Shown here: positions 2,352-38,168 of the stretch, one piece after another
Layout of the letters: each line of letters opens with the position of its first letter
Numbering within the stretch: the stretch's first letter is position 1
Origin: Chloroflexi bacterium TSY
GTDB lineage: Bacteria; Chloroflexota; Anaerolineae; Caldilineales; Caldilineaceae
NCBI GenBank assembly: GCA_019217005.1
Contig: JAHBNG010000129.1
Coordinates: 1 to 43,793 of the forward strand
DNA length: 43,793 bases
Direction: 5' to 3'
Notes under the pieces: model-generated
Databases searched by the model: none
Told to the model about the DNA's origin: nothing
Seen by the model: the letters and a program-made list of their open reading frames with translations, nothing else
Made by a program: the position numbers and the translations under genes

Positions 2352-2587
2352 TCGTTTGTTCTCGTATAGGAAAGTATCAGTAGTCCGCAGTCGTCAGTCC
2401 AAAGTCCAGAGTCACAGTTGACTGGTAAAATTGTGTATTGCGGTCTGCCCTGAAAAAAAGGGCAGCAAGAGAAGAGAGAGAGGGGTTAAAGGCCGCGTTG
2501 AATAAGAAGCGGGTCCAAGTTGACCCGCCAGAGTGGGTGGCGTCGTTGCCTGTGCCCAACGCAAATCAGTTGTAGTGAGCACCGTAC

Positions 2588-3794: not shown

Positions 3795-4029
3795 CTTCCT
3801 TTCCTTTCGCAGCCGCTTATGTGTACCCGATTGTGAGCACAGTCTGCCCTGCGTGTTTCGTCCCGAGGAACGTCCACATCCCGTGGTGCGTCGGTGTACA
3901 CCAATCTAGCTACTGAGCGTTCTTTACTTGACCACGGACCTTTCCCGATTTCTGTTCGGCGGCTGCCACCACACTTTAACACATTTTTCATCCCCTGTTG
4001 TGTTGGCTCACCGCATGTTTATCTACTGA
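3795..4029 (-). ncRNA. candidate IS110 bridge RNA region, copy 1
   Basis: This is the non-coding leader between the element end and the recombinase start. On the + strand, TAGCTACTGAGC at 3907-3918 repeats the right half of the insertion target (CTACTGA), and CTGCCCTG at 3844-3851 repeats the element's other terminus. Read in the recombinase direction, the target-like block comes first and the donor-like block second, the order described for IS110 bridge RNAs (target loop, then donor loop). A GGTGTACACC palindrome lies next to the target-like block. Exact RNA ends and folding were not computed. Confidence 0.5.
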
Positions 4030-5702: not shown

Positions 5703-5814
5703 AAATTGGGTGTCTGACGACAGGTAGCATATGGTGGAGTTACGATTCCACAATAGACATGCATGAATTATACCACTGATTCGTACGGTTTGCATTCAGT
5801 GTGGAGATGAAGAA

Positions 5815-6429: not shown

Positions 6430-6578
6430 TGCGGTCTGCCCTGAAAAAAAGGGCAGCAAGAGAAGAGAGAGAGGGGTTAAAGGCCGCGTTGAATAAGAAG
6501 CGGGTCCAAGTTGACCCGCCAGAGTGGGTGGCGTCGTTGCCTGTGCCCAACGCAAATCAGTTGTAGTGAGCACCGTAC

Positions 6579-7781
6579 TTAGGCGGTCGGTGCCAAGAAA
6601 ACCTGAAGCCGAGGGACTCGAGGGTTTTGAGTGCGCCGGTTTGCATGCTCCTTGCGTCGTTTGAGAAAGAAGTCGCCGCCGAGTTCTTCAAAGACGGCAT
6701 CGGGCTTGTCGATGAGATGATAGACGATGGTCAAGATGGAATGGGCCACGGCAATAGCTGCCCGCTTGGCTCCGCGTCGTGCCTTGAGACGGTGGAACTG
6801 TGCGGCGAGATAGGTGTCCTTGGTGCGAGAGGAGGGCGGTGACTAACCATTTCTGGCCTTTCGTCGGCGACCACTCTTGCGTTTGCCCGCCGATTCGTTG
6901 TTGCCAGGACAGACACAAGCCCAGGAGGCCAGTTTCTTAGCTGAGGGCCAGCTTTCGACCGAGGGACCGATCTCCGCCAGAATTATCTCGGCGACGACTC
7001 GCCCCACACCGGGAATGGCATCTAGGCGTGCGATGAGGTCAGCATGCGGAGCCATGAGGACCCCAATCTGTTGATTGAGGGCATCAATGCGTACATTCAG
7101 GTGATCGAGATGATGCAGAACTTCTTGCAGCATAAAACGATGATGAGGACGGACCAGTCCCGTCAACGCATCAACCAACTGGGGAATCTTGGCCCGCAGC
7201 CGCTTTTGTGCCAAGTCAGCCATGGCTTCTGGGTCCATCTCATCTGCAATCAGGGCCTCGATCATCTGGCGTGCCGATACACCTTGGATGCTCGTGACCA
7301 CCGATCCCAACTTGACGTTGGCATCTTCCAACACCTTATGCAGGCGATTGACTGCCGCACTCTTCTCTTGCAAGAGACGCGTCCGATAGCGCGTCAGGTC
7401 TCGCAAGTCCCTTTGCTCCACATCTGGAATGAAACTGCGCTCCAGCAGTCCATAACTCATCAGTTTCGTGATCCAGGCCGCATCGCTCTCATCCGTCTTG
7501 CGACCAGGCACCTGTGCCAGATGGCGGGCATTCACAATCCAGACCTCAAAATGCTCATGCAACACATTGTAGATCGGTTTCCAATACACTCCCGTACTCT
7601 CCATCGCCACATGCGTGATCCCATACGACGACAGCCACGACCTCAACCCCTCCAACTCGACCGTCGTTGTCCCAAATCGCTTGCGCACCTGCTCCATCCT
7701 CCCTGATTCATCTACCACACACGCCACTACCATCCGCTTGTGAACATCCAGGCCGCTGCACTTCGGAAACATCACTTCCAT
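6579..7781 (-). pseudogene. IS110-family recombinase, copy 2, doubly frameshifted
   Basis: The first 300 or so residues are identical to the copy at 2588-3794, including the DEDD motifs and NNESAGKRKSGR. A one-base loss in a C run ends the frame early, after GRRRKARNG at 6843. The conserved tail is still readable in two other frames down to a stop at 6579. This copy therefore carries the shared C-terminal lesion plus at least three private indels. Confidence 0.85.
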
Positions 7782-8016
7782 CTTCCTTTCCTTTCGCAGC
7801 CGCTTATGTGTACCCGATTGTGAGCACAGTCTGCCCTGCGTGTTTCGTCCCGAGGAACGTCCACATCCCGTGGTGCGTCGGTGTACACCAATCTAGCTAC
7901 TGAGTGTTCTTTACTTGACCACGGACCTTTCCCGATTTCTGTTCGGCGGCTGCCACCACACTTTAACACATTTTTCATCCCCTGTTGTGTTGGCTCACCG
8001 CATGTTTATCTACTGA
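7782..8016 (-). ncRNA. candidate IS110 bridge RNA region, copy 2
   Basis: Same organisation as 3795-4029: a target-like CTACTGAG at 7898-7905 region and a donor-like CTGCCCTG at 7831-7838. It differs from copy 1 only at 7905. Confidence 0.45.
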
Positions 8017-9983: not shown

Positions 9984-10000
9984 GAAAAAGACTAAAGACA

Positions 10001-10207
10001 ATGGGACAGTGGGAAACGCTGGAAACAACATGGTGGGAAACGAACGTCGTCAACTGCTCGTTTTGTGGTGAAATGATTCCGCGCCGGGAATGGGTCTCCG
10101 AGATCGAGGGACAACGCCGTGTCTTCTGTCAACCAGAATGTGAGCAGTTGTATTTGGACTATTGGGTGCCGAAGCATGGCTATACGATTCCCGCGCAGAA
10201 AGGGTGA
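10001..10207 (+). CDS. small Cys-rich putative zinc-binding protein, copy 1
   Basis: This 68-residue protein has a CSFCGE pair and a second CQPECE pair about 25 residues later, giving a CxxC...CxxxC arrangement expected to bind one zinc ion (TRASH/MYM-like layout), and a conserved-looking C-terminal YLDYWVPKHG. It starts 18 bp after hyuB and is probably co-transcribed, suggesting a third, accessory component of the hydantoinase-like enzyme; that role is inferred from position only. Confidence 0.7.
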   Translation: MGQWETLETTWWETNVVNCSFCGEMIPRREWVSEIEGQRRVFCQPECEQLYLDYWVPKHGYTIPAQKG

Positions 10208-10280
10208 ATGCTTTAAATTGCAATTCGACCATTTCCTAAGAGAGTGTTTTAAAAGTGAAAGCAAAAGGCTAGCAAACGCC

Positions 10281-10363
10281 GGTTGAGTCACGAAGTGGTA
10301 TCGAAACCAGCGTTTGTGGGTCGACCCGTTTGGTTACGATACGCCTTCGGCTACTCAACCGGC
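10281..10363. repeat. REP-like palindrome (first unit)
   Basis: The arms GCCGGTTGAGT and ACTCAACCGGC flank a segment containing TATCGAAACC and GGTTACGATACGCC, a second inverted pair. A related block is at 40441-40510. It may act as a transcription end for the hyuB operon. The same sequence recurs at 10651-10733. Confidence 0.6.
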
Positions 10364-10370
10364 AAAGACA

Positions 10371-10577
10371 ATGGGACAGTGGGAAACGCTGGAAACAACA
10401 TGGTGGGAAACGAACGTCGTCAACTGCTCGTTTTGTGGTGAAATGATTCCGCGCCGGGAATGGGTCTCCGAGATCGAGGGACAACGCCGTGTCTTCTGTC
10501 AACCAGAATGTGAGCAGTTGTATTTGGACTATTGGGTGCCGAAGCATGGCTATACGATTCCCGCGCAGAAAGGGTGA
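10371..10577 (+). CDS. small Cys-rich putative zinc-binding protein, copy 2
   Basis: Identical in protein sequence to the gene at 10001-10207, as the second half of the 370-bp tandem duplication. The frame is also open upstream to 10314 through the palindrome, but the ATG at 10371 matches copy 1 and is the likely start. Confidence 0.65.
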   Translation: MGQWETLETTWWETNVVNCSFCGEMIPRREWVSEIEGQRRVFCQPECEQLYLDYWVPKHGYTIPAQKG

Positions 10578-10874
10578 ATGCTTTAAATTGCAATTCGACC
10601 ATTTCCTAAGAGAGTGTTTTAAAAGTGAAAGCAAAAGGCTAGCAAACGCCGGTTGAGTCACGAAGTGGTATCGAAACCAGCGTTTGTGGGTCGACCCGTT
10701 TGGTTACGATACGCCTTCGGCTACTCAACCGGCACTGATCGCACCTTTTGAAACACCCTCTAAACAAATCAAGCTCGGTTGTCCAACAAACCAAGCAAAA
10801 CGGCCAACAACGCATCCAATCCAGTCGGTGCGACAAAGCTGTTTGAATCCCGGGTAATTCTAAAGACGATAGTG

Positions 10875-19661: not shown

Positions 19662-19925
19662 ATCCTGATAAAACGTCTCGATAGGCCAACGAAGCAGGTA
19701 AATCGAGAGAATGCGTTTGGCATTACAGTCGGTGCGATTGGTCACTAAAACGGCATAATTGTCTTGCAATTCAGGATTATCAAAACTAATCACGATGCGT
19801 ACCTTGCCGATAGAAGGGATACGCACAGTCATGGTAAAGGTGTAGTAAGTACGACCATCAATGGTGACAGGCTTGTAGGCATTCTGGGGGATGTAGGGGA
19901 CCAACTCTTTGACTTTAATATGTGG

Positions 19926-20080
19926 GGGGTGGTTCATTTTAGCTGGATAGATAGGTTTACACTTTTAGAAACAGAAAGAACGTTTATATTCTCTGATTTC
20001 GCCGGTTCTCAGAGAGAAAACGGTCTCATATAGATTTTTGTCTATATATCAAAAGTGTAAACCTAATTTTGAACCACCCC
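19926..20080. mobile_element. 155-bp MITE (GGGGTGGTTCA family), copy 1
   Basis: Terminal inverted repeats GGGGTGGTTCA, with a second inner inverted pair TAGGTTTACACTTTT. An 8-bp target duplication ATATGTGG (19918-19925, 20081-20088) is confirmed by the uninterrupted IS701 copy near 37500. The interior matches the copy at 27776-27930. Confidence 0.9.
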
Positions 20081-21125
20081 ATATGTGGCCCCTCGAAAGT
20101 TATCGGCTGACCATCTTCATCCCGCAAACGAAAACTATTTGTCTCCAGATTGCGATTGCACTTCAAGATGCTGATCCAATCTTTATTCAGACGATCGAGT
20201 ACAGCTAGAAAATCTGGAGCGAGATACCAACCATCGAAGAGAGCCCAACCAAAGATAAGGGTTCGTTCAACAGCTTTTTCAACCAGTTCACTGGCAATGG
20301 TTATCTTGGTCTTAAACGCTTCGTCTCGCTCTCGAAAGGCGGGGTCAGTTAATAGGTGGCTATCCACTCGTTTATGAAAAGCGGTTCGTTCTTTCTTTTC
20401 TTGGGAATCTCGGTCACTGGAAATGTTTTCCACAAATGCTTCCCAGTCGGTAAACTCTTCGTACCGTCGGTAGATACTTGCATCGACCGGAAAACGGATA
20501 GCGCCACTGACATAGTGACTTGTGACTAAGTTATGAGCCAGTGGATGCTGACCATTGCTATGATTGTAGTGGGTGTCGATATACTCGAACAGACTTCCCA
20601 CATGTTCACATAGTGTATCATCAATCGCTAATACCGATTCTGACTCTGAACGTTGGTATTGTGCTGTCTCTGACTTCATGTAACCTATACGATCATCATT
20701 GAGTTTTTCGGCTCGCCAAGGAGCTTCACTCAGATACCGTGATACATTCGTCTTATCTGCACTATCTAGAATGCAACGGGCAATATTTGCCATGCTTTTG
20801 TTGTCCAAGACCATCAGACCCGTCAGATAGTTTTCAAAGTGGCGAAACTGTTTACGATTGGCAAATACTGAACGAAAGGTTTCGCTATGCTCCTTGACCA
20901 GTGGTGCTACATTTACTATCGGCAATTGCATCTTGATGGCTCCTTTTCTGCACTTTTTTCTTGATGCAATCTATTGAGATGACTTTTGTCTCTTTTGTCA
21001 AAATTGGAAAACCTTCATTTCACAACTATCGAGTACCTGAGTAAGAGATTAGATTACCCATCTAATTAGCCTATTTGATTCGGTCCAAATTTCTTGATTG
21101 AAATTAATCTCAAGGGGGGAAAAGC

Positions 21126-21668
21126 ATGCCTGCTGAAAACAATGTCGATAATTCACTACCCAAATTGGGCATACCTTACGAAGCAAGTTTAACTAAAGCC
21201 TTCGACAAATTAACCTCGCAGGTTTTGATATTTCTATTGGCTTATGTAATTCTTCTGATAGGTTTGGCAGCATTTGGTTCAGATCTGCCTAATACTCTAC
21301 ACAGTCTACTCCATATAATTCCTGTTCTGGGGGTGGGAGCTTACGTTTGGTCACAGCAACGGAACATTGCTCAGGAAGCAGTTGCCAAGGGCTTAGACAT
21401 TAAAGGGGGGATAATAAGAGATTCGGCAAAGTTGACAGGTGCAAGGGGAGCGACTGGTCAGATACCAGAAAACATAAAGTTGGATGTAGGCTATGCTAGT
21501 GGCCATGCTGAGGTTACAGGCGTAGATTATGGCGGTTTTGAAGAGCCACGCGGGAATCTGGCTCAGGCGATGTCCGACATCTACAAAGAACTTGACCAAA
21601 GCAGTCAAGTTAAGCTGCTGGGTAACGCACAGCGTTTACTCGAAACACAAAGGCAGTTACGTCAATGA
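21126..21668 (+). CDS. two-TM membrane protein, first gene of the STAND operon
   Basis: This 180-residue protein has two hydrophobic segments, about 33-50 (VLIFLLAYVILLIGLAAF) and 60-76, separated by a short loop, then a cytoplasmic Gly-rich region and a helical C terminus. AGGGGGGA lies eight bases before the ATG. The stop overlaps the next start as ATGA, so the product is translationally coupled to the NACHT ATPase. I do not recognise the family. By position it is likely the membrane partner or effector of the ATPase. Confidence 0.75.
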   Translation: MPAENNVDNSLPKLGIPYEASLTKAFDKLTSQVLIFLLAYVILLIGLAAFGSDLPNTLHSLLHIIPVLGVGAYVWSQQRNIAQEAVAKGLDIKGGIIRDSAKLTGARGATGQIPENIKLDVGYASGHAEVTGVDYGGFEEPRGNLAQAMSDIYKELDQSSQVKLLGNAQRLLETQRQLRQ

Positions 21669-23476
21669 CCAAACCCTTCGGCACAATTACGACCAACAAC
21701 AATATTATCTATTCTCACTATGATCCAGCGAAATTTGTCGGTCGTCGTTGGTTGGTTGACGAAGTCGCCCGCTTCCGGGATAGCCGGGACGGGCGACTTC
21801 TTCTGATCATTGGCGAACCGGGCAGTGGCAAATCGACCTTTATGGCCTTTCTTGCGACTATCTGGAACTGTCCACTTCATTATATCAGAGTTGATAACAT
21901 TCGTGGCGTAGCCGGAGTAGACCCACGCTCATTTCTCGTTTCCATTGGTGACCAATTGTACCAGAAATATGGTCCCGACATATTCTTCAAAGATGAGATC
22001 GGCAGTACGGTAGTCACATCAGGTTTAACCAAAGACAAAGCCGAAGTGATCGGTCGTTTCATTGATGAATTGTATACATTACCTTTTCTCCCTCCACCGA
22101 AGAGAGATGTGTCTATCAATGCAGGAATCGCTATTGGTGAGAGTAAGGTCATCGGCGAGCGGATAGGGAAGATGGTAGATGTAACCCATGCCCTCGATGA
22201 GACAACGTTACTACACGTAGCCGTCCTCAACCCTGTGCAGAAGGTGAAGGAGCTTTACCCTGATGAGAAGGTCGTCATCCTGATCGATGCTCTGGATGAG
22301 TCATTGAAGCACCTGGGCACACAGGTTTTGGATGTGATACCGCGGGAGGCAGATAGCGATTTTCCTAGCAACTTGCGGCTGGTCATGACCAGCCGACCTG
22401 GCAACCATCTAGCGTCATTCCGGAGAAAGGATCAGTTTAGACTTGATGATGAAGAAAATGGGAATAAGACAAGGACACTGCAAGACATCCGCCAATATAT
22501 AGATAATAAACTAGCAGCAAAACCACTGGCTACCGCCATCGCCACATGGCCTGAAGCTGAAAGGAAAGCATATGTTGAAGAAATCGCTATTCGCAGTGAT
22601 GGGAACTTTCTCTACCTCCATCACTTCTTCAGTGAACTGACTGCAGCAGTCGAACAGGAAAATACAGATCTGCACCAGATTGGCGTTCCTAGGGGACTTG
22701 ATGAAATCTACCAGGTTTTTGCCGTTGAAAAAATAAGGAGGCTAGTTGATGAATTTGTTGTCGATAAGCGAAACTTTGATACTATCCGATTTTCCGTAGA
22801 AGGGATCATCACAGATGAGTTGGTAAACCAGTGGCAAAAACTTGAAGGAGTTCAACAAATCGAGGTTGACGCCCAAAACGTTACAGTGACCGTAGTAGAT
22901 AGTACAAAGGTGCAACACAAATTTCTTAGACCTGCTCTCAAGGCCGGCGTTGATATAGACGACGACAATATGGAAATACAGGAGGGAGCAACGTTAATTT
23001 ACAATTGGGACTGGGAAGAAAAATATTGTCCGATATTGGGCATATTAGCTGTATCCCATGAGCCCCTTAACCGTGAGCAACTGGCCAGGTTTGCTAAAGT
23101 AGATGTAATTTATGTTGATACAATTGTTGCTCAACTAAAGCAGTTTTTGAGAGTAGAAATAGCTGAACAAGAAGTTTCCTACCGTCTCTTTCACCAGTCA
23201 TTCAGCGAATACCTGCTAGATAGTAGTCGCAATAGTGATTATCCTCTCAATAGTAAATTCTACCATGGTATGATTGCCGACTTCTATCTTGATGAGCGCA
23301 AACATTGGAACAATGTAGACTGGACTCAAGTATTTGAAAATTATCCTTACCATCATTTGATATCTCATCTAATAGCTGGTGACAGAAAAAATGAAATCTA
23401 TTCAACTTTACTTTCTGGTAAAGGCTTGAGTGACAAAGGGCAAACCGAAAGGGGCGGAAAAAAGAATCCACCCTGA
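21665..23476 (+). CDS. NACHT/STAND ATPase segment (5' part of the interrupted gene)
   Basis: Walker A GEPGSGKST is at residues 50-58, Walker B VVILIDALDE at 203-212, and a sensor-like RLVMTSRPG at 238-246. Winged-helix-like sequence follows (PILGILAVSHEPLNREQLARF) with LFHQSFSEYLLD, the usual end of NACHT modules. STAND ATPases of this type act as ligand-triggered switches that oligomerise. Native coding ends at residue 580 (23404); the last 23 residues to 23476 are read from the inserted IS. The start overlaps the upstream stop as ATGA. Confidence 0.88.
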   Translation: MTKPFGTITTNNNIIYSHYDPAKFVGRRWLVDEVARFRDSRDGRLLLIIGEPGSGKSTFMAFLATIWNCPLHYIRVDNIRGVAGVDPRSFLVSIGDQLYQKYGPDIFFKDEIGSTVVTSGLTKDKAEVIGRFIDELYTLPFLPPPKRDVSINAGIAIGESKVIGERIGKMVDVTHALDETTLLHVAVLNPVQKVKELYPDEKVVILIDALDESLKHLGTQVLDVIPREADSDFPSNLRLVMTSRPGNHLASFRRKDQFRLDDEENGNKTRTLQDIRQYIDNKLAAKPLATAIATWPEAERKAYVEEIAIRSDGNFLYLHHFFSELTAAVEQENTDLHQIGVPRGLDEIYQVFAVEKIRRLVDEFVVDKRNFDTIRFSVEGIITDELVNQWQKLEGVQQIEVDAQNVTVTVVDSTKVQHKFLRPALKAGVDIDDDNMEIQEGATLIYNWDWEEKYCPILGILAVSHEPLNREQLARFAKVDVIYVDTIVAQLKQFLRVEIAEQEVSYRLFHQSFSEYLLDSSRNSDYPLNSKFYHGMIADFYLDERKHWNNVDWTQVFENYPYHHLISHLIAGDRKNEIYSTLLSGKGLSDKGQTERGGKKNPP

Positions 23477-24909
23477 AAAAACGGGATAAAATGTAAAAAT
23501 AGTGCTCGGCTAGTTTAAGCAGCGGCATTGAGGCGGCGATGAGCGAGAACGCCTTTAGGTAAATGGTGTGAAACCGAGGCCTTTTTCCGAAAGTCAGGGT
23601 CGAGTTGGTCGGGAGTTGGAAAAAGAGCACTCGAGAGAACGCGGCGCAGCCTGCCGGGAGTGGCTTGAGGCTCTCGATCCCAGTAGCCAGTCGGTATGGG
23701 AGGAAGAGAAGCGGCTAAATGGGAAAGAAGATTGCCAGCAAGCAGCCCCAGTTCAGGTAAGCGGAAGCAAGCCTCATCGGCATGAACAAATTGACGATGT
23801 AAGCCAATCATCTGCTTGGAAGCCAAGGGGGGATGTTCAACAGGCCAGCGCTCCAGAGAGAAAAGATAAATGGTTTCAGCTTGTAAAGCCATGACGGTCG
23901 CCAGAACCAAAGGTGTGTGATAAGCAGGATCCTGAAAGACGTAAATCGAATAGGTGCGGTTGGCTGTATCCACCTTGGTTGTCCTGGGGACGAGATTGTG
24001 CCATGCTTGATAGCGAATCAGGCGACCACTATAGACAAATTGACCAAACGAGTCTGGAGTTGTGGCCTCGAGTCGCTTTCCCCTATAGCATCGAGAGAGC
24101 GGACGCACAATATCACCATATTCGGGTGGTCTGCCTTTTTCCTTACGTTCGGGTAACTCATTGCGGCGCGCTGTGCAGTTAATCGCTTCCCGAAGGACAA
24201 ATCGGTCGACGTCGCTTTCTAGCATTTCTCTGATTGTAAACCCGGCATCGACCACCGCCACTTCGTCTGACTCCAGTGATTTCTTGGTCTCTTTCAGCAG
24301 CTTTTTCCGAAACTCACTTTCCTTTGTGCCTACCTCGCATCTCATGATTGCCTTGAGCAGTGGCACTCGTTTCCCGCCTATCTCCCCCGAGCTTATCATC
24401 ACTCCAAAGATGAGCGCGGGCAATGCCCGACGAGCCGTTGAGTTATAGAGTCGGTTCACTTTCCCTTGCAGCTTCGGTCGCCAGAACCCTGTGATATCTA
24501 TGCTTTTCACTCGGTATCCTTCTAACTTTTTTGCCTCCCATTCCCCTTTCCACTCCACTTCTTCTTGCCACGATGAGAGCAGGCTTGCAATATCCCATGA
24601 TCCATATCGAAAGCTCCACCAGCTTCGCCGGATCTCCTCATCTTCAAACCCGCTTTCACTCAATCCACTATGGATTGCTCCTCGACTTTTCAGAAACGAC
24701 CCATTCATCATCGCCCACATCAGACACATTACATTTACGTTTGTTCCCACCGGCGTTACTTGCAATACATTCATCAGTACTGCTATAGTTATTTCTGGTG
24801 CGGTTAGCATTCCTTCCTCCTTTTTGGTTTCGCTACCTTTAGGATGAAACGCTAACCGCTTTTTGTCACATTTCTCACCTCATCTCTTTTCTTTTACCAG
24901 AAAGTAAAG
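23406..24909 (-). mobile_element. IS4-like insertion sequence in the NACHT gene
   Basis: A 17-bp perfect inverted repeat CTTTACTTTCTGGTAAA marks both ends. The flanks are TTCAA (23401-23405) and TTCAT (24910-24914), a probable 5-bp target duplication with one mismatch. One transposase gene lies inside on the minus strand. Removal with one flank copy keeps the host gene in frame. Confidence 0.82.
23515..24810 (-). CDS. DDE transposase (IS4-like)
   Basis: This 431-residue protein has plausible DDE residues in SIDITGFWRP, EVAVVDAGF and SLERWPVEH. The last has the spacing and hydrophobic context of the glutamate motif in IS4/IS1634-type enzymes. It appears uninterrupted, so this element may still be active. 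The family was assigned by motif only; subgroup uncertain. Confidence 0.75.
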   Translation of the reverse strand: MLTAPEITIAVLMNVLQVTPVGTNVNVMCLMWAMMNGSFLKSRGAIHSGLSESGFEDEEIRRSWWSFRYGSWDIASLLSSWQEEVEWKGEWEAKKLEGYRVKSIDITGFWRPKLQGKVNRLYNSTARRALPALIFGVMISSGEIGGKRVPLLKAIMRCEVGTKESEFRKKLLKETKKSLESDEVAVVDAGFTIREMLESDVDRFVLREAINCTARRNELPERKEKGRPPEYGDIVRPLSRCYRGKRLEATTPDSFGQFVYSGRLIRYQAWHNLVPRTTKVDTANRTYSIYVFQDPAYHTPLVLATVMALQAETIYLFSLERWPVEHPPLASKQMIGLHRQFVHADEACFRLPELGLLAGNLLSHLAASLPPIPTGYWDREPQATPGRLRRVLSSALFPTPDQLDPDFRKKASVSHHLPKGVLAHRRLNAAA

Positions 24910-24913
24910 TTCA

Positions 24914-27883
24914 TTGATAAACATGGGTTGGATGAATGCAAAATTTGAGCGCACTAATTCACATCAGTCTTTCTCTCAGGATCTGACGACAGCTATCAAA
25001 TTAGCGGAGGGTGAGACGCCTGCGAAATTCGCACAAGTTGTCCGCGCAAGTGTGATATACATAACTTTAAGATCCGTTGTAAATGCTATGTCCCCTGAAT
25101 TGATAGGCATGTTAGCTCATACGGGCAAACCTGAACTCACGGCGACAGCGGAAGGTAGTGCAGCACTCATTTTAGAACCACTAGGGCAAACTAGGGCTTA
25201 TCAATTCATTAGTGAAGCATACATAGAAGATAACAGGTTAGAAAAAGCCAAAAGCAACATAAGAAGGGGTTTGCGAGCAGCTACAGCGATCGGCTCCACG
25301 GTGGACAAGGCAAATACATTAGTAGACCTTGCAAAGCTAATTTCACAACTAGATGGCAGTGATTGTGTTGATGAATTGCTGTCTGTTGTGAAAACACAAT
25401 CTGAAAATGATGCAATAGCGTTCACATTAGGCAAGATTGCTCGAATCTTCGCTTTTTCAGGCAAAAAGGATGTATGTTTATTGATAACTCGACAATCTAT
25501 AGCTGTTGCTAAGATGCTCAATGATGAATCAATTTTAGTATATGGCTCACATGAACCGTATGCCTTGGCGGCTGTTGCACTTAGTCGCGTAGGAGAACAA
25601 GAGAAATCCGCAGAATATGCTGCTCTGGCATTGAATGCTGCAAAAGCCAAGTCTACTAAAGCAATTTCTGTTCTGAAAGTTACGCAAATTCTGCTTGAGC
25701 TAGTTGAGAAGGAAAAGGCTATCGAAGCTGCTAACGAGGCATCAACAGCAATCGAAGCCCTTCCAGATGGAATGACCAAGTTGATTTGTTTGAGTGAGTT
25801 GGCTAAGTATCTAGCGAAACTAGGAGAAACGGATAAGGCAGTATCTGCCGCTAATGGTGTGCTTCGTACCACAAATATGATTGCATCCGGTTATAAAGCA
25901 GAGGCCCTAAGCAACATATCTCAAACATTCGCGCTGTTAGATAATCAAGAAACAGCGGTGTCGGTAGCAGAAATGGCACTAGAAGCAGCGAAGACAATTG
26001 GGAAGGCGGAGAACAAGACGGGAATTCTAGCACGAGTAGTAACCCCTGCATTAGAACTGACTGATAGTAAAAAGCTACTGCATTGCGCTCTTGAGATCAT
26101 CGATTCAACCAAAGTTCCTTTGTGGGAGAGATCAGGTTGCATTAAGATGATAGCTGAAGCTATGTGTAAGATAAATGATAGAGAAGGGCTAAGACAAGCA
26201 CTGGTTGTTGCGGATAGATGTGATAGCGAATGGGAAAGGTTAACTGCTCTTGGTAGTGTAGCTAGTTACATGATAAAACTTGGAGAAGATAGGCAAGCAA
26301 TTGCGGTAGCCAACCAAGCACTTGCTGAGGCGCGAAGTCTCTTTGGTGACGAATATGACAAATCAGCAGCACTTGGGGCAATCGCAATGGCTCAGGCCCG
26401 GGTTGGAACTCCAGAAGGGATAAAGCGTGCACTGTCTGTGGTGGATTCCCTCATACCCGTTTACAGAGCGGCTACATTGGTTGCAGTCGCTCAGTTCTTG
26501 TATGCCTCTGGTAAGAAGAGGCAAGCGAGCAAAATAATCAGCCGTGTCTCTACAATAATCGAATCATTCAGGGGATTGACTCCAAGAGATTCGTTCGCTT
26601 TAATCAGACTTGCACAGGCATTGAATTATCTAAACAGGAAACAAGAATTAAACAAGCTAGTAACAAAAGTGAAGGCTGCTCATGGCGATGACTATACCCA
26701 TAATCTCCTCACGCTCGCAATAGCTAGTCAAATGAACGGGAAGTTGCCGGGTCAGGTTCATGAGTTCATAAATGATCAAATTGAGAACATCAAAGATGTT
26801 GCTACAAATGTAGAGAGTAATTGGAGACAGGGACCTGTATTAGGCATTCTAGTCAATGGCATGCTAGAGATGGGGTATTTTGAGCAAATCGCCGATTTAA
26901 ATAGAGATGGTACTATTAATATTGACGAACTCGAAATCAAATGGAAAAAAGCAGCTCAGCATAGCATGAAAGCACAACTGTTAGCGGCGGTAGGAAATAA
27001 AAGTGAATCACTCTCCACTCTATTGACAGCTATTGCGGATTCACGCGAATGGAGCCGCAATTCATTGTTTCGCGTACTTGAGTACGGATCTGAAATATTG
27101 GCGGATATAGATCAGGGTGTAACTTTATGGGATATTTATGAGGCTATCAGGAACGTAGATAGCTGGTGGCATACTGCGAATGACAGCTATTTTATGAGTC
27201 ACAGATATCTATCGCTGAGAAATCGTATGATCGAGAATTTCGGCAAAAATGTGATTGGCAAATGTTCTGTTGTCACCCCACTTAGTGTTCAGCTAGCAAT
27301 CGATCTTTTTGTTAATTTGCAAGCTAATGGACGCAATTCACTATCAATAGAGTCTGGTAGAAACACTCTCGAAATTGTGAGTGTTTCGGAATTAGAACAC
27401 GCATCGCAGCACTACCGTGGATTATTTCTCCAAATGATTGAAAAACTTGGAAAGAGAATGGGATTGCATATTCCTAGCGTTGAGTTCCGAGTTGATGAAA
27501 GCTATAGATATCCAGGATCCTACACTATTAGTGTTAATGAAACGGTGGTAGCTCGTCAGCAATTGTCATACGAAAGACAACTGTATGCTGGTCCCGTCCA
27601 AAGATTACATGACCTAAAAGTAGTAGGTTATCGCACTTGCAATCCACGAACAGGAGAAGATGCTTATTGGATTTTAAGGCAAAATTGGGAAAAAGTAGAG
27701 GACGCAAAGGGGAGGCTGTGGAATAATCTTGAATATATCATCGGGCATTCAGAAGCCATTATCGGCAAAAACCTGGGGGTGGTTCATTTTAGCTGGATAG
27801 ATAGGTTTACACTTTTAGAAACAGAAAGAACGTTTATATTCTCTGATTTCGCCGGTTCTCAGAGAGAAAACGGTCTCATATAG
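24914..27883 (+). CDS. helical-repeat and FlhA_C N-terminal segment (middle part of the interrupted gene)
   Basis: This is the middle 954 native residues plus 35 residues read into the MITE. The first residues (WMNAKFERTNSHQSF) complete the NACHT module. Most of the rest is a long array of 35-50-residue helix pairs rich in Ala/Leu (LAKLGETDKAVSAAN, QTFALLDNQETAVSVAE), a TPR/HEAT-like sensor. DLNRDGTINIDE at 26894-26929 is a canonical EF-hand loop. From about 27430 the FlhA C-domain begins: IEKLGKRMGLHIPSVEFRVD aligns with the FlhA block that reads FAQDMGFLPPVVHIRDN in Escherichia coli. The TTG at 24914 is not a native start. Confidence 0.85.
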   Translation: MINMGWMNAKFERTNSHQSFSQDLTTAIKLAEGETPAKFAQVVRASVIYITLRSVVNAMSPELIGMLAHTGKPELTATAEGSAALILEPLGQTRAYQFISEAYIEDNRLEKAKSNIRRGLRAATAIGSTVDKANTLVDLAKLISQLDGSDCVDELLSVVKTQSENDAIAFTLGKIARIFAFSGKKDVCLLITRQSIAVAKMLNDESILVYGSHEPYALAAVALSRVGEQEKSAEYAALALNAAKAKSTKAISVLKVTQILLELVEKEKAIEAANEASTAIEALPDGMTKLICLSELAKYLAKLGETDKAVSAANGVLRTTNMIASGYKAEALSNISQTFALLDNQETAVSVAEMALEAAKTIGKAENKTGILARVVTPALELTDSKKLLHCALEIIDSTKVPLWERSGCIKMIAEAMCKINDREGLRQALVVADRCDSEWERLTALGSVASYMIKLGEDRQAIAVANQALAEARSLFGDEYDKSAALGAIAMAQARVGTPEGIKRALSVVDSLIPVYRAATLVAVAQFLYASGKKRQASKIISRVSTIIESFRGLTPRDSFALIRLAQALNYLNRKQELNKLVTKVKAAHGDDYTHNLLTLAIASQMNGKLPGQVHEFINDQIENIKDVATNVESNWRQGPVLGILVNGMLEMGYFEQIADLNRDGTINIDELEIKWKKAAQHSMKAQLLAAVGNKSESLSTLLTAIADSREWSRNSLFRVLEYGSEILADIDQGVTLWDIYEAIRNVDSWWHTANDSYFMSHRYLSLRNRMIENFGKNVIGKCSVVTPLSVQLAIDLFVNLQANGRNSLSIESGRNTLEIVSVSELEHASQHYRGLFLQMIEKLGKRMGLHIPSVEFRVDESYRYPGSYTISVNETVVARQQLSYERQLYAGPVQRLHDLKVVGYRTCNPRTGEDAYWILRQNWEKVEDAKGRLWNNLEYIIGHSEAIIGKNLGVVHFSWIDRFTLLETERTFIFSDFAGSQRENGLI
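26894..26929 (+). other. EF-hand calcium-binding loop within the helical array
   Basis: The encoded DLNRDGTINIDE has Asp1, Asn3, Asp5, Gly6, Thr7, Ile8, Asn9 and Glu12, matching the EF-hand consensus at every ligand position. It is flanked by predicted helices (MLEMGYFEQIA before, LEIKWKKAAQ after). Only one loop is seen; EF-hands usually pair. Confidence 0.6.
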
Positions 27884-27930
27884 ATTTTTGTCTATATATC
27901 AAAAGTGTAAACCTAATTTTGAACCACCCC
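27776..27930. mobile_element. 155-bp MITE (GGGGTGGTTCA family), copy 2
   Basis: Same length and interior as 19926-20080, with GGGGTGGTTCA ends and an 8-bp target duplication AAAACCTG (27768-27775, 27931-27938). It brings an in-frame TAG at 27881-27883 that truncates the host gene. Confidence 0.92.
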
Positions 27931-28508
27931 AAAACCTGGACAAACTTCTAGGATATCAACAGACTTTAGATATGCTACGAATACAATTGCCTGATCTATT
28001 TGATCGTATGAAAGATAATCCTGAAGACTTAAACTCCCTTACAATTGTTCTAAAGTCACTGCTGAAGGAACGAGTGCCAATTGTTGCGTTTGAAGAAATT
28101 GCTGATGAATTTATGCGACTTAAGAATTCGAATATTGGACTGATTCCCATTACCGAGGCAATGCGAAGTATTCCCAAGATTTGTCCCCAGCTACCCGGGA
28201 ACAATGAATCGTACCATTTCTATCAACTTGATTCCAAGTTCGAGGATGTGCTAAATTCAAATTTCAATAGAAGCGATTCCCATGCCGTCCTTGCCATAGA
28301 ACCACAGCAGTACCAACGTTTTCTTGCTTCAATGCGCAATGCGATGACTGTTCAATGGAATACTGCTCTAATTGTAAATAATGCATTTCTACGACCATTT
28401 GTCAAGCGACTCATAGCAAATGAATTCCCCGACATACCTATATTGTCTATGCGCGAGCTACGGCAAGATCTCAGCAGCCGAATAGTTGGGAAGATCGGTT
28501 TGTTATAG
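27888..28508 (+). CDS. FlhA C-domain segment (3' part of the interrupted gene)
   Basis: Native coding resumes at 27939. It carries the hallmark run of the FlhA/FHIPEP cytoplasmic domain: a SLLKERVPIVAFEEIADEF block (FlhA: NLLAEKVPIRDMRTILE), LPGNNESYHFYQLDSKFEDVL (FlhA: WFPGNEEVQVIGLDTALERLL), and FLRPFVKRLIANEFPDIPIL (FlhA: LRPLLARFLRRSLPQLVVL). These match over the whole domain, not one motif. The first 17 residues of the open frame come from the MITE. FlhA_C normally binds substrate-chaperone complexes in flagellar export; here it is fused to a NACHT ATPase. Confidence 0.85.
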   Translation: MSIYQKCKPNFEPPQNLDKLLGYQQTLDMLRIQLPDLFDRMKDNPEDLNSLTIVLKSLLKERVPIVAFEEIADEFMRLKNSNIGLIPITEAMRSIPKICPQLPGNNESYHFYQLDSKFEDVLNSNFNRSDSHAVLAIEPQQYQRFLASMRNAMTVQWNTALIVNNAFLRPFVKRLIANEFPDIPILSMRELRQDLSSRIVGKIGLL

Positions 28509-28510
28509 TC

Positions 28511-28708
28511 ATGGAAGAGTACATAAAGGTAATAGCTTTGTACTCTGTTAATGCTTTGACAAATGTGGAGCGGAGATTCTATCCAACCAGCAGCAATATG
28601 GACCATCTATCCGACAAGATATCCGCTCGAGCTTCAGCTATCGTCTCAAAGAGAAAGTGGAATGACTACAGCACATGCAAAATTAGGCCAGATCTTGGTA
28701 AATGTTGA
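28511..28708 (+). CDS. possible small coupled ORF, unknown
   Basis: A 65-residue frame starts with ATG two bases after the previous stop and overlaps the next gene's likely start by 47 bp. It could be a small protein, or the out-of-frame N terminus of the following gene after an indel. No family recognised. Confidence 0.3.
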   Translation: MEEYIKVIALYSVNALTNVERRFYPTSSNMDHLSDKISARASAIVSKRKWNDYSTCKIRPDLGKC

Positions 28709-30407
28709 GTTAGGATCCTGTTTAGCGCGTTTTGCAAACTCAGATCGAGATGAAGAAAATATCTTTAGAGATCATCTTCTTCGTAATCTAGAAATCTTAT
28801 TGGATGACTTAAAAATTCCAGCGGAGGTCTTGCTAGTTGTTGGTCTAGGTAGCCATAAGACTGACATTGTTGCCAGCGACTACCAATTAACCGTTAATTG
28901 CCAAAAGTGTAGATTGCTTCTGCCAGCAACTGTCCCTAGAGATGTAACTGCCCATGAATTAGCGAGATTAGTCGCCAGACAAATATACCACAACCGTGAG
29001 TTACTCATTGACAGGTTTCTATCCGAAGCGATTTGGAAAAGCTGGATGATAGTAATAAATGAGAACAGTCTGTCCAAACAATTTCAGCAAGAATTTCATG
29101 ATTTTCTGTCGCTGCTGATCCTCAATTACTTTAACATTGAAAGGGTTAAGAGAAGTACCGCATCAATCATAGAAGCTACACTGAACTGCACCAATGCTAA
29201 CGAGTGGCAAGTATTTGGTAGACCGGCAGAGACAATGCATGATTGTTCACAGGCGAATGAACGATGTGAACATCTCTCGAGACGGTACTTTGAGCACGCA
29301 ATTTTTGATTTGAATAACATAAGATTGTCCGTTATTCTCAGCGAGCAATCGCCTCTACAAACTTCTGCTGATACTCAATCATTGGAAGAGATGCTGGATA
29401 AAATGCGCGACGATCTTTATATTGAACTTGGTGTTCTAATTCCTAGAGTAATAGTTGATACAGATCAAAAACTGCAAAAATATAGATTTCGTATTCAAAT
29501 AAATGATGTTCGTTTCCCGTCTTTGTTTGGTTTAGAGTCAGGTAGTTTTTTTGTAAATGAGTCCCCTGCCAAGCTTGCGCAATTTAATATCACTGCCAAA
29601 TCAGCAATTAATCCAACAGATGGCAGTAGAGGTTCAATCATTCAAGATAGAGATAATACATTAGAATGGTGCAAAAGCATGGATATGCCAACTTGGACTC
29701 CATTAGAATTTATTGTGCTGAGTATATCGTCTGAAGTTCGACGCAATGCAAGTAAACTATTGACGGCTGAGACTGTAAGTTTCAGCATTGATCTCTTACG
29801 AAAAGAGTTTCCTCATTTAGTGGCTTCTGTTGTCGCACGCTTCGATATAATAAGTTTAGTTAGTATATTGAGGGACTTGCTATACGAACAGATCTCGATT
29901 CGCAATCTGCAAGGTATTCTCGAAAGTTTGTTGACTATTAATGGCATCACTCGCGTCGATCTAAGCAAATATATGGTGTTTTCACCGAATATTGAACAAT
30001 TGGTCCCCTTATGTAAGGATAAAACAATCGAGAATGTAGATATCTCTGACTACTCAAAATATGTTCGTATACCTCTAATTGAATCATATATTTCTAATAG
30101 CTATTGGGCAGAAAATAAAACCTTGGCCATATATCAGTTAGACTCATTACTAGAGGGCAGAATCAGGCGTTTGGATGCCGATCCACTGCAAGAAAAGGAG
30201 CATAATCAGTTAATCCAAATATTGTACGAATTGACATCTGTTCGGCCTGACCCATCGCAGTATCCAGCCGTTATAACTAACATAGATATAAGAAAAAGGT
30301 TCAGGCTTCTAATTGAGAAAGAATTGCCACAACTTGCTGTTCTATGCTATCAAGAATTAAAAGCCGGAATGAAACTGCAACTGATTGAAGTGATTTCTAT
30401 AACTTAA
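28662..30407 (+). CDS. soluble protein with C-terminal FlhA_C (FHIPEP cytoplasmic) domain
   Basis: This 581-residue protein has no transmembrane segment. The N-terminal 240 residues are unfamiliar, mostly helical and Leu-rich. From about 250 the FlhA C-domain is clear: IELGVLIPRVIVDTDQKLQ (FlhA: GFLPPVVHIRDNMDLQ), SEVRRNASKLLTAETVSF (FlhA helices before the QNLL block), LRDLLYEQISIRNLQGILE (FlhA: LQNLLAEKVPIRDMRTILE), and NSYWAENKTLAIYQLDSLLE. The frame opens at 28563; the ATG at 28662 follows an AG-rich stretch and is my choice, though an upstream start is possible. It lies in line between the NACHT-FlhA_C gene and the DUF1795-like gene. Confidence 0.8.
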   Translation: MTTAHAKLGQILVNVELGSCLARFANSDRDEENIFRDHLLRNLEILLDDLKIPAEVLLVVGLGSHKTDIVASDYQLTVNCQKCRLLLPATVPRDVTAHELARLVARQIYHNRELLIDRFLSEAIWKSWMIVINENSLSKQFQQEFHDFLSLLILNYFNIERVKRSTASIIEATLNCTNANEWQVFGRPAETMHDCSQANERCEHLSRRYFEHAIFDLNNIRLSVILSEQSPLQTSADTQSLEEMLDKMRDDLYIELGVLIPRVIVDTDQKLQKYRFRIQINDVRFPSLFGLESGSFFVNESPAKLAQFNITAKSAINPTDGSRGSIIQDRDNTLEWCKSMDMPTWTPLEFIVLSISSEVRRNASKLLTAETVSFSIDLLRKEFPHLVASVVARFDIISLVSILRDLLYEQISIRNLQGILESLLTINGITRVDLSKYMVFSPNIEQLVPLCKDKTIENVDISDYSKYVRIPLIESYISNSYWAENKTLAIYQLDSLLEGRIRRLDADPLQEKEHNQLIQILYELTSVRPDPSQYPAVITNIDIRKRFRLLIEKELPQLAVLCYQELKAGMKLQLIEVISIT

Positions 30408-30439
30408 CTTTGGTTCATAGCACAAATTAGGAGAAAATT

Positions 30440-30904
30440 ATGTCGCTGATGAATTTTCCAGGTTTTTCGTTAGAAGCTCAGCCCGGTTGGTCTCTTGACA
30501 CCATTATACTTAGCGGACCTCCTCAACATCAAACGGTCAGTTCTGATTCGTTAATCGGCATAGATCCACAAGAATTCCAACCTAATCTTGTTGCTACATC
30601 AGAACGTGTTTCGCCTATTGTTTCGCTGGAAAGCTACGTTGAGTCCCAGATTCAGGGATACGCATCTTCCGGGATATTTCGTCAGCAGGATGGACCAAGT
30701 GAAAAAGTGATTCTCAGCGGTGGTTTACATGGTATAGTTTGGGAGCAGGTTGTAAAAGGTCAAGATGGATCGTACGTACGACAAATTCAGCTAGTGACGA
30801 TTAAGGAAAGCGTTGCCTATACACTAATATTAAGTGGTCTTGATTGTGCAACTTTCAAGCAGAATCGAGAACAGAATCTGGGTATCTTATTGAGCTTCAA
30901 ATGA
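30440..30904 (+). CDS. DUF1795/DcrB-like protein
   Basis: This 154-residue protein starts 32 bp after the FlhA_C gene with AGGAG upstream of the ATG. It has the DUF1795/DcrB/Eag-like layout: an early PGWSLDTIIL strand, a middle SLESYVESQIQGY helix, and late strands YVRQIQLVTIKESVAYTLILSG ending in a helix and FK. Members include periplasmic DcrB and the Eag chaperones that load type VI effectors. No signal peptide is visible, so a cytoplasmic, chaperone-like role is more likely. Assignment is by pattern only. Confidence 0.6.
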   Translation: MSLMNFPGFSLEAQPGWSLDTIILSGPPQHQTVSSDSLIGIDPQEFQPNLVATSERVSPIVSLESYVESQIQGYASSGIFRQQDGPSEKVILSGGLHGIVWEQVVKGQDGSYVRQIQLVTIKESVAYTLILSGLDCATFKQNREQNLGILLSFK

Positions 30905-33966: not shown

Positions 33967-34074
33967 CAGTAGATCCAAATCTAACGCAAAAACTAGATAT
34001 TGACCGGCAAATTTGTATTTATGTCAACTGTTTAGCCAGAATTCTCTCTCAAAACCTGAAATTTGGATCTACTG
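33967..34074. mobile_element. 108-bp MITE (CAGTAGATCC family, short form)
   Basis: Ends CAGTAGATCC/GGATCTACTG as in 19447-19661. It lacks an internal 107-bp block, the join lying at CCAAAT, which occurs at both edges of that block. Flanks AGTCT (33962-33966) and AGTAT (34075-34079) are a probable 5-bp duplication with one mismatch. Confidence 0.8.
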
Positions 34075-34212
34075 AGTATGGATTGTGCCACCAACGATGA
34101 CCAAGTCGTTGGCACTTGAAGAACCGGAAGCCTGAGTCAGTTCTTGCGCAGTTCCATAAGATTCAAGATTTGGTTTTGTATAAGTCTTGCGGATCTTTTG
34201 TTGTTTCATCAT
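34069..34212 (-). CDS. lasso-type RiPP precursor-like peptide
   Basis: This is a 47-residue peptide with GAGGAG seven bases before a double ATG (34212/34209). Its leader reads YTKPNLESYGTAQELTQ, matching the Y-x2-P-x-L-x3-G-x5-T motif that the lasso B1 protein recognises, with Thr at the -2 position. The core would begin ASGSSSAND, placing Asp at position 9, a standard ring-closing distance. The final Gln and the TAG stop are encoded by the end of the 108-bp MITE, so the C terminus is not native. No B1, B2 or C maturation genes lie in the window. Confidence 0.6.
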   Translation of the reverse strand: MMKQQKIRKTYTKPNLESYGTAQELTQASGSSSANDLVIVGGTIHTQ

Positions 34213-34746
34213 CCTGCAACTCCTCTCTGGCTCGTCATCTTGGAGAGCTATGCTTCCTGTGAGCCAATGATTTTGAAACTCAACAGGCCGCAAGCGTGTC
34301 ATTCTCGAGCGAAGCGAAGAATCCAACGATTGCGGTCTATTGAAACTAGTAACCATGTGTTTTAATTCTATTGTCCCTGCTAGCCAGTGTATAGGGCACA
34401 TATCGTCACGGCTTTTTTCTGTTTATCCAACTCTCTAAACAAAATAAGGTTACAAGACACAAGTGTAATTGTTTTTACTGGATAAAAGAATGACGAAATG
34501 CCTACGATTCCTTTACGAGACGAATCTCATCTAGCGGAGAGGCACCAACCATACATTTCCCTCGCGTCAGCTTGGCACAAATTCCCTACGTCGTTCCACT
34601 GTGGTCTTCTTGTCTGCTTTCCGTAATCAAGCATTGGCTCGAGCATAGTAACCTATCTAGCAAACCCATTTACCCTTTCCCCCACACCCTTTTTTGAAGC
34701 AAACTGAATATATTGTTGATTCTCTATGTGTACGTGATGATATGTC
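34213..34746. other. gene-free stretch
   Basis: No gene seen. It contains a common intergenic repeat motif (TTCTCGAGCGAAGCGAAGAA, near 34302) and the presumed promoter region of the precursor gene. Confidence 0.4.
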
Positions 34747-36550: not shown

Positions 36551-38105
36551 CTCGATAGTTGTGAAATGAATATTTTCCAAATTTGACAAAAGAGACAAAA
36601 GTCATCTCAATAGATTGCATCAAGAAAAAAGTGCGAAAAAGGAGCCATCAAGATGCAATTGCCGATAGTGAATGTAGCACCACTGGTCAGGGAGCATAGC
36701 GAAACCTTTCGTTCAGTATTTGCCAATCGTAAACAGTTTCGCCACTTTGAAAACTATCTGACGGGTCTGATGGTCTTGGACAACAAAAGCATGGCAAATA
36801 TTGCCCGTTGCATTCTAGATAGTGCAGATAAGACGAATATATCACGGTATTTGAGTGAAGCTCCTTGGCGAGCCGAAAAACTCAATGATGAGCGTATAGG
36901 TTACATGAAGTCAGAGACAGCACAATACCAACGTTCAGAGTCAGAATCGGTATTAGCGATTGACGATACACTATGTGAACACGTGGGAAGTCTGTTCGAG
37001 TATATCGATACACACTACAATCATAGCAATGGTCAGCATCCACTGGCTCATAACTTAGTCACAAGTCACTATGTCAGTGGCGCTGTTCGTTTTCCGGTCG
37101 ATGCAAGTATCTACCGACGGTACGAAGAGTTTACCGACTGGGAAGCATTTGTGGAAAACCATTTCCCAGTGACTGAGATTCCCAAGAAAAAAGAAAGAAC
37201 GAACCGCTTTTCATAAACGAGTGGATAGCCACCTATTAACTGACCCCGCCTTTCGAGGGCTAGACGAAGCGTTTAAGACCAAGATAACCATTGCCAGTGA
37301 ACTGGTTGAAAAAAGCTGTTGAACGAACCCTTATCTTTGGTTGGGCTCTCTTCGATGGTTGGTATCTCGCTCCAGATCTTCTAGCTGTACTCGATCGTCT
37401 GAATAAAGATTGGATCAGCATCTTGAAGTGCAATCGCAATCTGGAGACAAATAGCTTTCGTTTGCGAGATGAAGACGGTCAGCCGATAACTTTCGAGGGG
37501 CCACATATTAAAGTCAAAGAGTTGGTCCCCTACATCCCCCAGAATGCCTACAAACCTGTCACCATTGATGGTCGTACTTACTATACCTTTACCATGACTG
37601 TGCGTATCCCTTCTATCGGCAAGGTACGCATCGTGATTAGTTTTGATAATCCTGAATTGCAAGGCAATTAGGCCGTTTTAGTGACCAATCGCACTGATTG
37701 TAATGCCAAACGCATTCTCTCGATTTACCTGCTTCGTTGGCCTATCGAGACGGTTTATCAGGATGGTAAACAACTGCTTGGCCTTGATGAATATTGCATG
37801 CGAACTGCCCACGCCTTTCAAAAACATTGGTCTCTGGTCTTCGTGGCTTATTCTCTCTTGCACCTTGATTGTTTGGGACCATCATTGGCTAAAACTCAAT
37901 TCTCGCCCAGCAAATCCCTTGGTGAGGCTACTCGGCAGCAAGCTCAGTCACTAATTCAAGATCTCATCTTGACTGCACATCATGCCTTGAATGACGGACA
38001 GGAGATTGCAGAGGTCTTCGCTACCCTTTTCGCCAAACAGCAGGCCTGCTCTGCTTAATTTTGACTTTGTCAAATCCGGCACCTGCTCAAAATACAACTA
38101 TCGAG
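36551..38105 (+). mobile_element. IS701-family insertion sequence, copy 2
   Basis: CTCGATAGTTGT ends and a 7-bp target duplication TAAATAG (36544-36550, 38106-38112). It is 1555 bp, opposite in orientation to the copy at 19102-21033 and free of MITEs. Confidence 0.92.
36653..38058 (+). pseudogene. IS701-family transposase, copy 2, with several indels
   Basis: Nearly identical to the MITE-interrupted copy, but broken by its own lesions: extra bases in C and A runs at 37160-37195, another near 37305, and TAT changed to TAG at 37670. The readable pieces include LAIDDTL, FGWALFDGWYL and LLRWPIETVYQD. Confidence 0.88.
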
Positions 38106-38168
38106 TAAATAGTAGGTTTCTACCATTATTGTCTCTTGTATTCACCTAAATCGATTGGAGATTGATTC

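What the first reader, a model, noticed from the sequence alone, without database searches (positions are those of the whole stretch)
21126..30904. NACHT ATPase operon that has recruited the FlhA export-gate cytoplasmic domain
A STAND ATPase with long helical repeats ends in a full FlhA_C domain and sits with a two-TM protein, a second FlhA_C protein and a DUF1795-like protein. No flagellar or type III secretion gene or FlhA membrane domain is near. FlhA_C normally receives chaperone-substrate complexes at the export gate; as a module on a NACHT switch it could recognise flagellar or secretion-type ligands, or form a ring scaffold (FlhA_C is a nonamer). I know of no described system with this make-up, though I cannot search. 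Conflict/defence is an inference from the STAND context.
Basis: partly seen in the sequence, partly recalled or inferred. Interest (0 to 1): 0.9.

Follow-up and report, generated by a model that had tools for sequence, protein, structure and literature searches.

The report
Export-gate domains in signalling operons
The part of the bacterial flagellum and injection machine that receives cargo occurs, without its membrane half, in operons with molecular switches or proteases, also in an archaeon where no such machine was found; in this window the switch gene is real but broken by two mobile elements.

Summary

A and B belong to a wider family: 65 A-type homologs, nearly all TPR fusions, 32 with B on the same chain; the few source names include Acidobacteria, Deltaproteobacteria and archaea. 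One intact homolog is NB-ARC-TPR-FlhA_C, so STAND fusion probably arose twice. In a Methanomicrobiales MAG (no FliP, FlhB or third FlhA match) A and B abut a CHAT gene and a SycD/LcrH-type chaperone gene (102 bits; next best single match in 231 genomes of the order 62.5); a calpain-like gene lies downstream.

Best reading: a detached export-gate scaffold that docks chaperone-bound effectors under a STAND or CHAT trigger. Domain identity is shown; the link to signalling enzymes is supported by few loci; docking and conflict function are inferred. DUF1795 and the second TM helix were not confirmed.

The parts
21126..21668 (+). 180-aa protein with one strong and one weak hydrophobic segment; candidate membrane effector
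   Evidence: no family in Pfam, NCBIfam or PADLOC above noise
21665..23404 (+). NACHT/NPHP3_N STAND NTPase module; the listed ORF runs on to 23476 into the IS
   Evidence: relatives in two Streptomyces plasmids at 29-32% identity
23405..24909 (.). IS701-like insertion (transposase ORF 23515-24810 on - strand) between NACHT and repeats
   Evidence: inverted ends and TTCA on both flanks; weak IS701 match
24914..27235 (+). helical (TPR-type) repeats, same frame as the NACHT part
   Evidence: TPR_12 1.4e-7; frame
27236..27774 (+). first half of FlhA_C domain A
   Evidence: phmmer against A-type relatives, best domains about 1e-24
27776..27930 (.). MITE inserted in domain A
   Evidence: lies in an identical 157-bp repeat of 19925-20081; flanking AAAACCTGG copies
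27931..28508 (+). second half of FlhA_C domain A
   Evidence: FHIPEP 6.5e-21 for ORF 27888-28505; up to 46% identity to A-type relatives
28662..30407 (+). B-type FlhA_C protein, 581 aa (ORF open from 28563); FlhA_C fold at residues 217-581
   Evidence: FHIPEP 1.6e-32; model and fold matches
30440..30904 (+). 154-aa protein of unknown family, in the place where the archaeal operon has its SycD/LcrH-type gene

Best explanation
The operon is a NACHT version of a modular signalling system built round a detached type III export-gate scaffold. Shown: two distinct FlhA_C/SctV_C domains, A (fused to TPR repeats) and B (next to it or on the same chain), recur as a unit without the gate's membrane half. 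Supported by few loci: the unit is wired to signalling enzymes (NACHT here, NB-ARC in P0077, CHAT in the archaeon) and, in the archaeon, to a SycD/LcrH-type chaperone. Inferred: as in true SctV, the A/B pair docks a chaperone-effector complex in the cleft between subdomains, perhaps as a mixed ring; the STAND or CHAT trigger then clusters or releases the effector (the membrane protein here, a protease in the archaeon), most likely in conflict or cell-death signalling. The window's own copy is split by two insertions and is probably inactive.
For: FlhA_C identity by profile, PDB sequences and fold. 66 A-type hits, 64 with TPR families; 32 of 65 carry A and B on one chain; A and B form separate supported branches. 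NB-ARC-TPR-FlhA_C in P0077. Archaeal array CHAT / TPR-A / B / SycD-type with gaps of 5 bp or less, SycD score 40 bits above the next single match in 231 genomes, no FliP, FlhB or third FHIPEP match in that genome. CHAT zinc ribbon at the N-terminus of 5 of 66 A-type proteins. In YscV, a TPR chaperone with cargo docks in the SD2-SD4 cleft of a nonamer (PMC9163089, abstract and passages).
Against: Only two neighbourhoods (window, L001) could be read. NACHT-FlhA_C is seen once and broken; only 1 of 66 homologs has a STAND domain. PADLOC gave only weak partial matches: mad8 1.3e-3 and IetA 5.2e-3 for the NACHT part, SAVED_CHAT 1.6e-4 for the archaeal CHAT. No binding, ring or toxicity evidence. 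The archaeal chaperone is 2.3 bits under its family cut-off, and SycD has no counterpart of the same family in the window. Absence of FliP/FlhB rests on a MAG of unknown completeness.
Confidence: 0.45

Rival explanations
1. Integrated decoy: the FlhA_C domains on the switch sense foreign or host flagellar/T3SS chaperone-substrate complexes and trigger the STAND ATPase, like plant NLRs with integrated decoys (recalled).
For: Domain A sits at the C-terminal, sensor-side end of both STAND proteins (window, P0077); true FlhA_C/SctV_C binds such complexes.
Against: The family occurs in archaea, and in L001 the genome shows no FliP or FlhB and a SycD-type chaperone in the array itself, which points to an internal client. 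A and B are kept together in 32 of 65 single chains.
Confidence: 0.2
2. Adaptor of an unrecognised secretion or assembly apparatus: TPR-A/B proteins sort cargo for a non-canonical export machine, and the signalling genes are incidental.
For: B groups with a membrane-bound Myxococcales SctV, P0073 (99/92); 12 of 65 A-type proteins have N-terminal TM segments; a translocator-type chaperone in L001.
Against: No export-channel family in the L001 genome or among the scanned window ORFs; two different STAND fusions and a CHAT neighbour.
Confidence: 0.2
3. Accident: the NACHT-FlhA_C join in the window is a non-functional recombination product, now decaying.
For: Two insertions in the gene and repeated IS copies around it; no second NACHT-FlhA_C protein among 66 hits.
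Against: Both halves of A and all of B keep family conservation; NACHT and repeats share one frame across the IS; P0077 has a parallel intact architecture.
Confidence: 0.12

Closest known systems
FlhA / SctV export gate (FHIPEP family)
   Different: No membrane half; duplicated into A and B; fused to or beside TPR, STAND and CHAT modules
STAND/NACHT and CHAT conflict systems described by Kaur and colleagues (PMC7159879, PMC8195603)
   Same: STAND NTPase with repeats, or CHAT, beside a candidate effector gene
   Different: Neither paper's text holds the word FlhA (term finds only); the export-gate pair and SycD-type gene are extra
SctV with a TPR chaperone and substrate (YscV-YscX:YscY, PMC9163089)
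   Same: Gate domain paired with a TPR chaperone
   Different: Here without channel genes; the archaeal chaperone is of SycD/LcrH type, not SctY (SctY model only 0.0022)
TPR-CHAT protease of type III-E CRISPR (Craspase; abstract of PMC9729208 in the search listing)
   Same: CHAT protease working with TPR repeats
   Different: CHAT and TPR-FlhA_C are separate chains here, and no CRISPR component was seen in L001

Membership tests
FlhA/SctV export gate | Cytosolic FlhA_C/SctV_C domain | tested here: met
FlhA/SctV export gate | N-terminal multi-helix membrane domain | tested here: not met
   Profile matches start at position 326 or later and hydropathy shows no such run
FlhA/SctV export gate | Equivalog score (TIGR01398, TIGR01399) | tested here: not met
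   59.6-123.9 bits against 772.1 and 692.25
FlhA/SctV export gate | Cyclic ring of about nine subunits | not testable with these tools
   Only a monomer was modelled
STAND NTPase (NACHT) | P-loop NTPase with Walker A and B | tested here: met
   NPHP3_N over cut-off, NACHT 25 bits against 26.7; both Walker motifs
STAND NTPase (NACHT) | C-terminal superstructure repeats on the same chain | tested here: inconclusive
   Repeats follow in the same frame but behind an insertion
Known anti-phage NACHT/STAND system (PADLOC) | Match to a defence model along its length | tested here: not met
   Only P-loop stretches: mad8 1.3e-3, IetA 5.2e-3
SycD/LcrH class II chaperone (archaeal L001 protein) | TIGR02552 equivalog score | tested here: inconclusive
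   102.5 bits against 104.8; next single match in 231 genomes of the order 62.5 bits, at most 17 candidates scored per genome
DUF1795/DcrB (154-aa protein) | Profile or fold match | tested here: inconclusive
   No Pfam match up to E 1; model pLDDT 38

The most novel reading that the evidence does not exclude
The cargo-docking part of type III secretion (a SctV_C pair plus a TPR chaperone) exists as an autonomous cytosolic machine in bacteria and archaea that exports nothing: a mixed A/B ring that holds chaperone-bound effectors and is fired by STAND ATPases or CHAT proteases, an apoptosome-like wheel made of export-gate parts.
Probability: 0.3. Interest if true: 0.93.

Novelty: new variant of a known kind. 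Interest (0 to 1): 0.78.

Why it matters
FlhA_C/SctV_C is, to my knowledge, studied inside flagella and injectisomes. A family of soluble, duplicated gate domains joined to TPR, STAND and CHAT modules, found also in archaea together with a translocator-type chaperone, would mean that the sorting platform can work without the export channel. It would give a system of two or three proteins in which to test what the gate domain does by itself, and it adds an unexpected domain to prokaryotic STAND switches.

Tried and rejected

Carriers: phages, none for B, 5 unannotated records for A at 25-27% identity. Plasmids: 73 records for B, 123 for A, all under 60% identity; the 20 and 30 rows listed are T3SS/flagellar proteins or unannotated. 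Three viral-contig scans with the family and one with the 154-aa protein found no relative. More archaeal copies: 1 of 392 in the phylum sample, 1 of 232 in the order, 1 of 232 in the class, always G001; the order and class lists look like the same genomes.

Literature (open-licence PMC only, all ten searches used): FHIPEP+NACHT, FHIPEP+cyanobacteria, FlhA+NACHT, FHIPEP+CHAT+TPR, each 0 papers. FHIPEP alone, 16 papers, titles and abstract starts seen, none about soluble fusions. A six-term search, 17 papers, 15 listed: none of these holds FlhA or SctV together with 'CHAT domain' or 'caspase-like'. Listings only.

Full report
OBSERVATION. On the + strand, with short gaps, lie a 180-aa hydrophobic-segment protein (21126-21668), a STAND NTPase module (21665-23404), helical repeats (24914-27235), FlhA_C domain A (27236-27774 and 27931-28508), FlhA_C protein B (28662-30407) and a 154-aa protein (30440-30904). 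FHIPEP matches are 6.5e-21 and 1.6e-32. They cover the cytosolic half of the 657-position model; NCBIfam FlhA/SctV scores are 59.6-123.9 bits against cut-offs of 772.1 and 692.25. The STAND part has NPHP3_N 4e-8, NACHT 1.9e-5 (just under cut-off) and both Walker motifs.

THE GENE IS BROKEN. A 1505-bp element (23405-24909) with inverted ends and TTCA on both flanks separates NACHT from the repeats; both sides are in one frame. A MITE (27776-27930), part of an identical 157-bp repeat of 19925-20081, splits domain A between copies of AAAACCTGG.

A WIDER FAMILY. Searches with B gave 4 and then 10 proteins, with the number of scored candidates capped at 7994: P0002-P0008 are B-type, P0009-P0013 are membrane-bound secretion proteins. 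A search with the archaeal A domain gave 66 proteins: 64 have TPR families (not P0062, a fragment, and P0073, a Myxococcales SctV with TM helices). In the other 65 hydropathy shows no FlhA-type membrane half; some are partial (P0032, P0034, P0062). The few source names are Blastocatellia, Pyrinomonadaceae, Hermodarchaeota, Thorarchaeota, Deltaproteobacteria and, for P0073, Myxococcales. Of the 65, 32 carry A and B on one chain and 33 only A; 12 have one or two N-terminal TM segments. P0015/P0004 and P0016/P0002 have equal longest-contig lengths, which hints at neighbouring A and B genes. In a tree of 47 chosen rows A is one branch (100/100), and B joins P0073 (99/92) (bootstrap not fully settled).

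STAND FUSIONS. P0077, intact, 1851 aa, has NB-ARC (4e-4, 20.2 bits against 23.5), TPR and FHIPEP 5.1e-33. It is the only one of 66 with a P-loop at its N-terminal side; a loose match in P0041 lies inside its FlhA_C part. The window's A is nearest to P0020, P0014 and P0016 (35-46% by half) and far from P0077 (17% and 31%). The tree puts the window half with L001, P0014, P0016, P0020 and P0043 (99/97) and P0077 elsewhere, so two fusions are likely. In plasmids the window's NACHT has two relatives, both Streptomyces, at 29-32%; the one scanned with Pfam has no FlhA_C.

THE ARCHAEAL LOCUS. One scan of genome contigs found one locus, in a Methanomicrobiales MAG. Genes: a 351-aa unknown, CHAT (3.4e-13), TPR-A (FHIPEP 4e-37), B (4.7e-37), a 155-aa TPR protein, and, 733 bp further, a calpain-like protease (3e-20). 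CHAT, A, B and the TPR gene follow each other with gaps of 5 bp or less. The TPR protein matches SycD/LcrH at 1.5e-29, 2.3 bits under the cut-off; in the PDB its hits are PcrH, AcrH, SycD and IpgC, along with designed TPR proteins (the top hit) and eukaryotic ones. Control: 183 of 231 genomes of the order have a TIGR02552 match at 1e-10, but the next best single match is 62.5 bits against 102.2 here; one multi-repeat protein reaches 105.9 summed over its frame. The genome has no FliP or FlhB match and only these two FHIPEP matches; its completeness is not told. The neighbouring MutS is 51-60% identical over full length to others of the order, 83% to a fragment, so the contig looks archaeal. 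The trait is rare there: only this genome among 392 of the phylum and 232 of the order.

CHAT BEYOND ONE LOCUS. The zinc ribbon that ends the archaeal CHAT protein recurs at the N-terminus of P0018, P0057, P0076, P0040 and P0041 (1.1e-5 to 1.7e-3, for a set of 91 proteins; 5 of 66). This suggests that CHAT and TPR-A genes are neighbours elsewhere too. Zinc ribbons are common, so it is only a hint.

HOW IT MAY WORK. In YscV a TPR chaperone with cargo docks in the SD2-SD4 cleft, and the gate is a nonamer (PMC9163089, abstract and passages). A TPR fused to a gate domain, or a SycD-type chaperone beside it, repeats that pairing without a channel. I infer that A and B hold chaperone-bound effectors and that NACHT, NB-ARC or CHAT is the trigger. 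In the window the effector could be the 180-aa protein, and the 154-aa protein stands where the archaeon has its chaperone. None of these steps is shown. Against it: two readable neighbourhoods only, weak partial PADLOC matches, and an interrupted gene.

NOVELTY. The paper searches found no work that joins FHIPEP or FlhA with NACHT, CHAT or TPR fusions, and three comparative papers on such conflict systems do not hold the word FlhA (term finds). Some records are already named 'FHIPEP family type III secretion protein', so the sequences are known while I found no description of the system. I file it as a new variant of STAND/CHAT signalling; the bolder reading of an autonomous export-gate scaffold is not excluded.

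Noticed in passing
34069-34401 (-): Small ORF ending in a sequence that fits the lasso-peptide leader pattern YxxPxLxxxGxxxxxT (pattern recalled), with a possible A1-D9 ring; no maturation genes were looked for.
   Followed up: no
2439-4029 and 6430-8016: Two IS110-type copies, 99.6% identical, bracket an AAA_35 ATPase gene (4125-5795) between hydantoinase A and B genes.
   Followed up: no
9994-10734: Exact tandem duplication of 371 bp.
   Followed up: no
19925-20081: Copy of the MITE found in domain A, beside transposase fragments that recur at 36551-38106.
   Followed up: partly
P0014, P0019, P0020, P0021, P0043, P0054, P0060, P0065, P0067, P0068, P0071, P0072: A-type proteins with one or two N-terminal TM segments; the N-termini of P0014, P0021 and P0060 look alike: a gate domain anchored again by a foreign membrane segment.
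   Followed up: partly
L004 6404-6934; L005 5979-6935: Streptomyces NACHT genes have a small gene upstream; the two proteins share a glycine- and valine-rich C-terminal stretch (0 of 500 shuffles as good).
   Followed up: partly
phage records OR848566, OR847022, OR848565, OR846892, OR851025: Short records named as Listeria or Salmonella phages hold FlhA-like DNA; probably host DNA.
   Followed up: no
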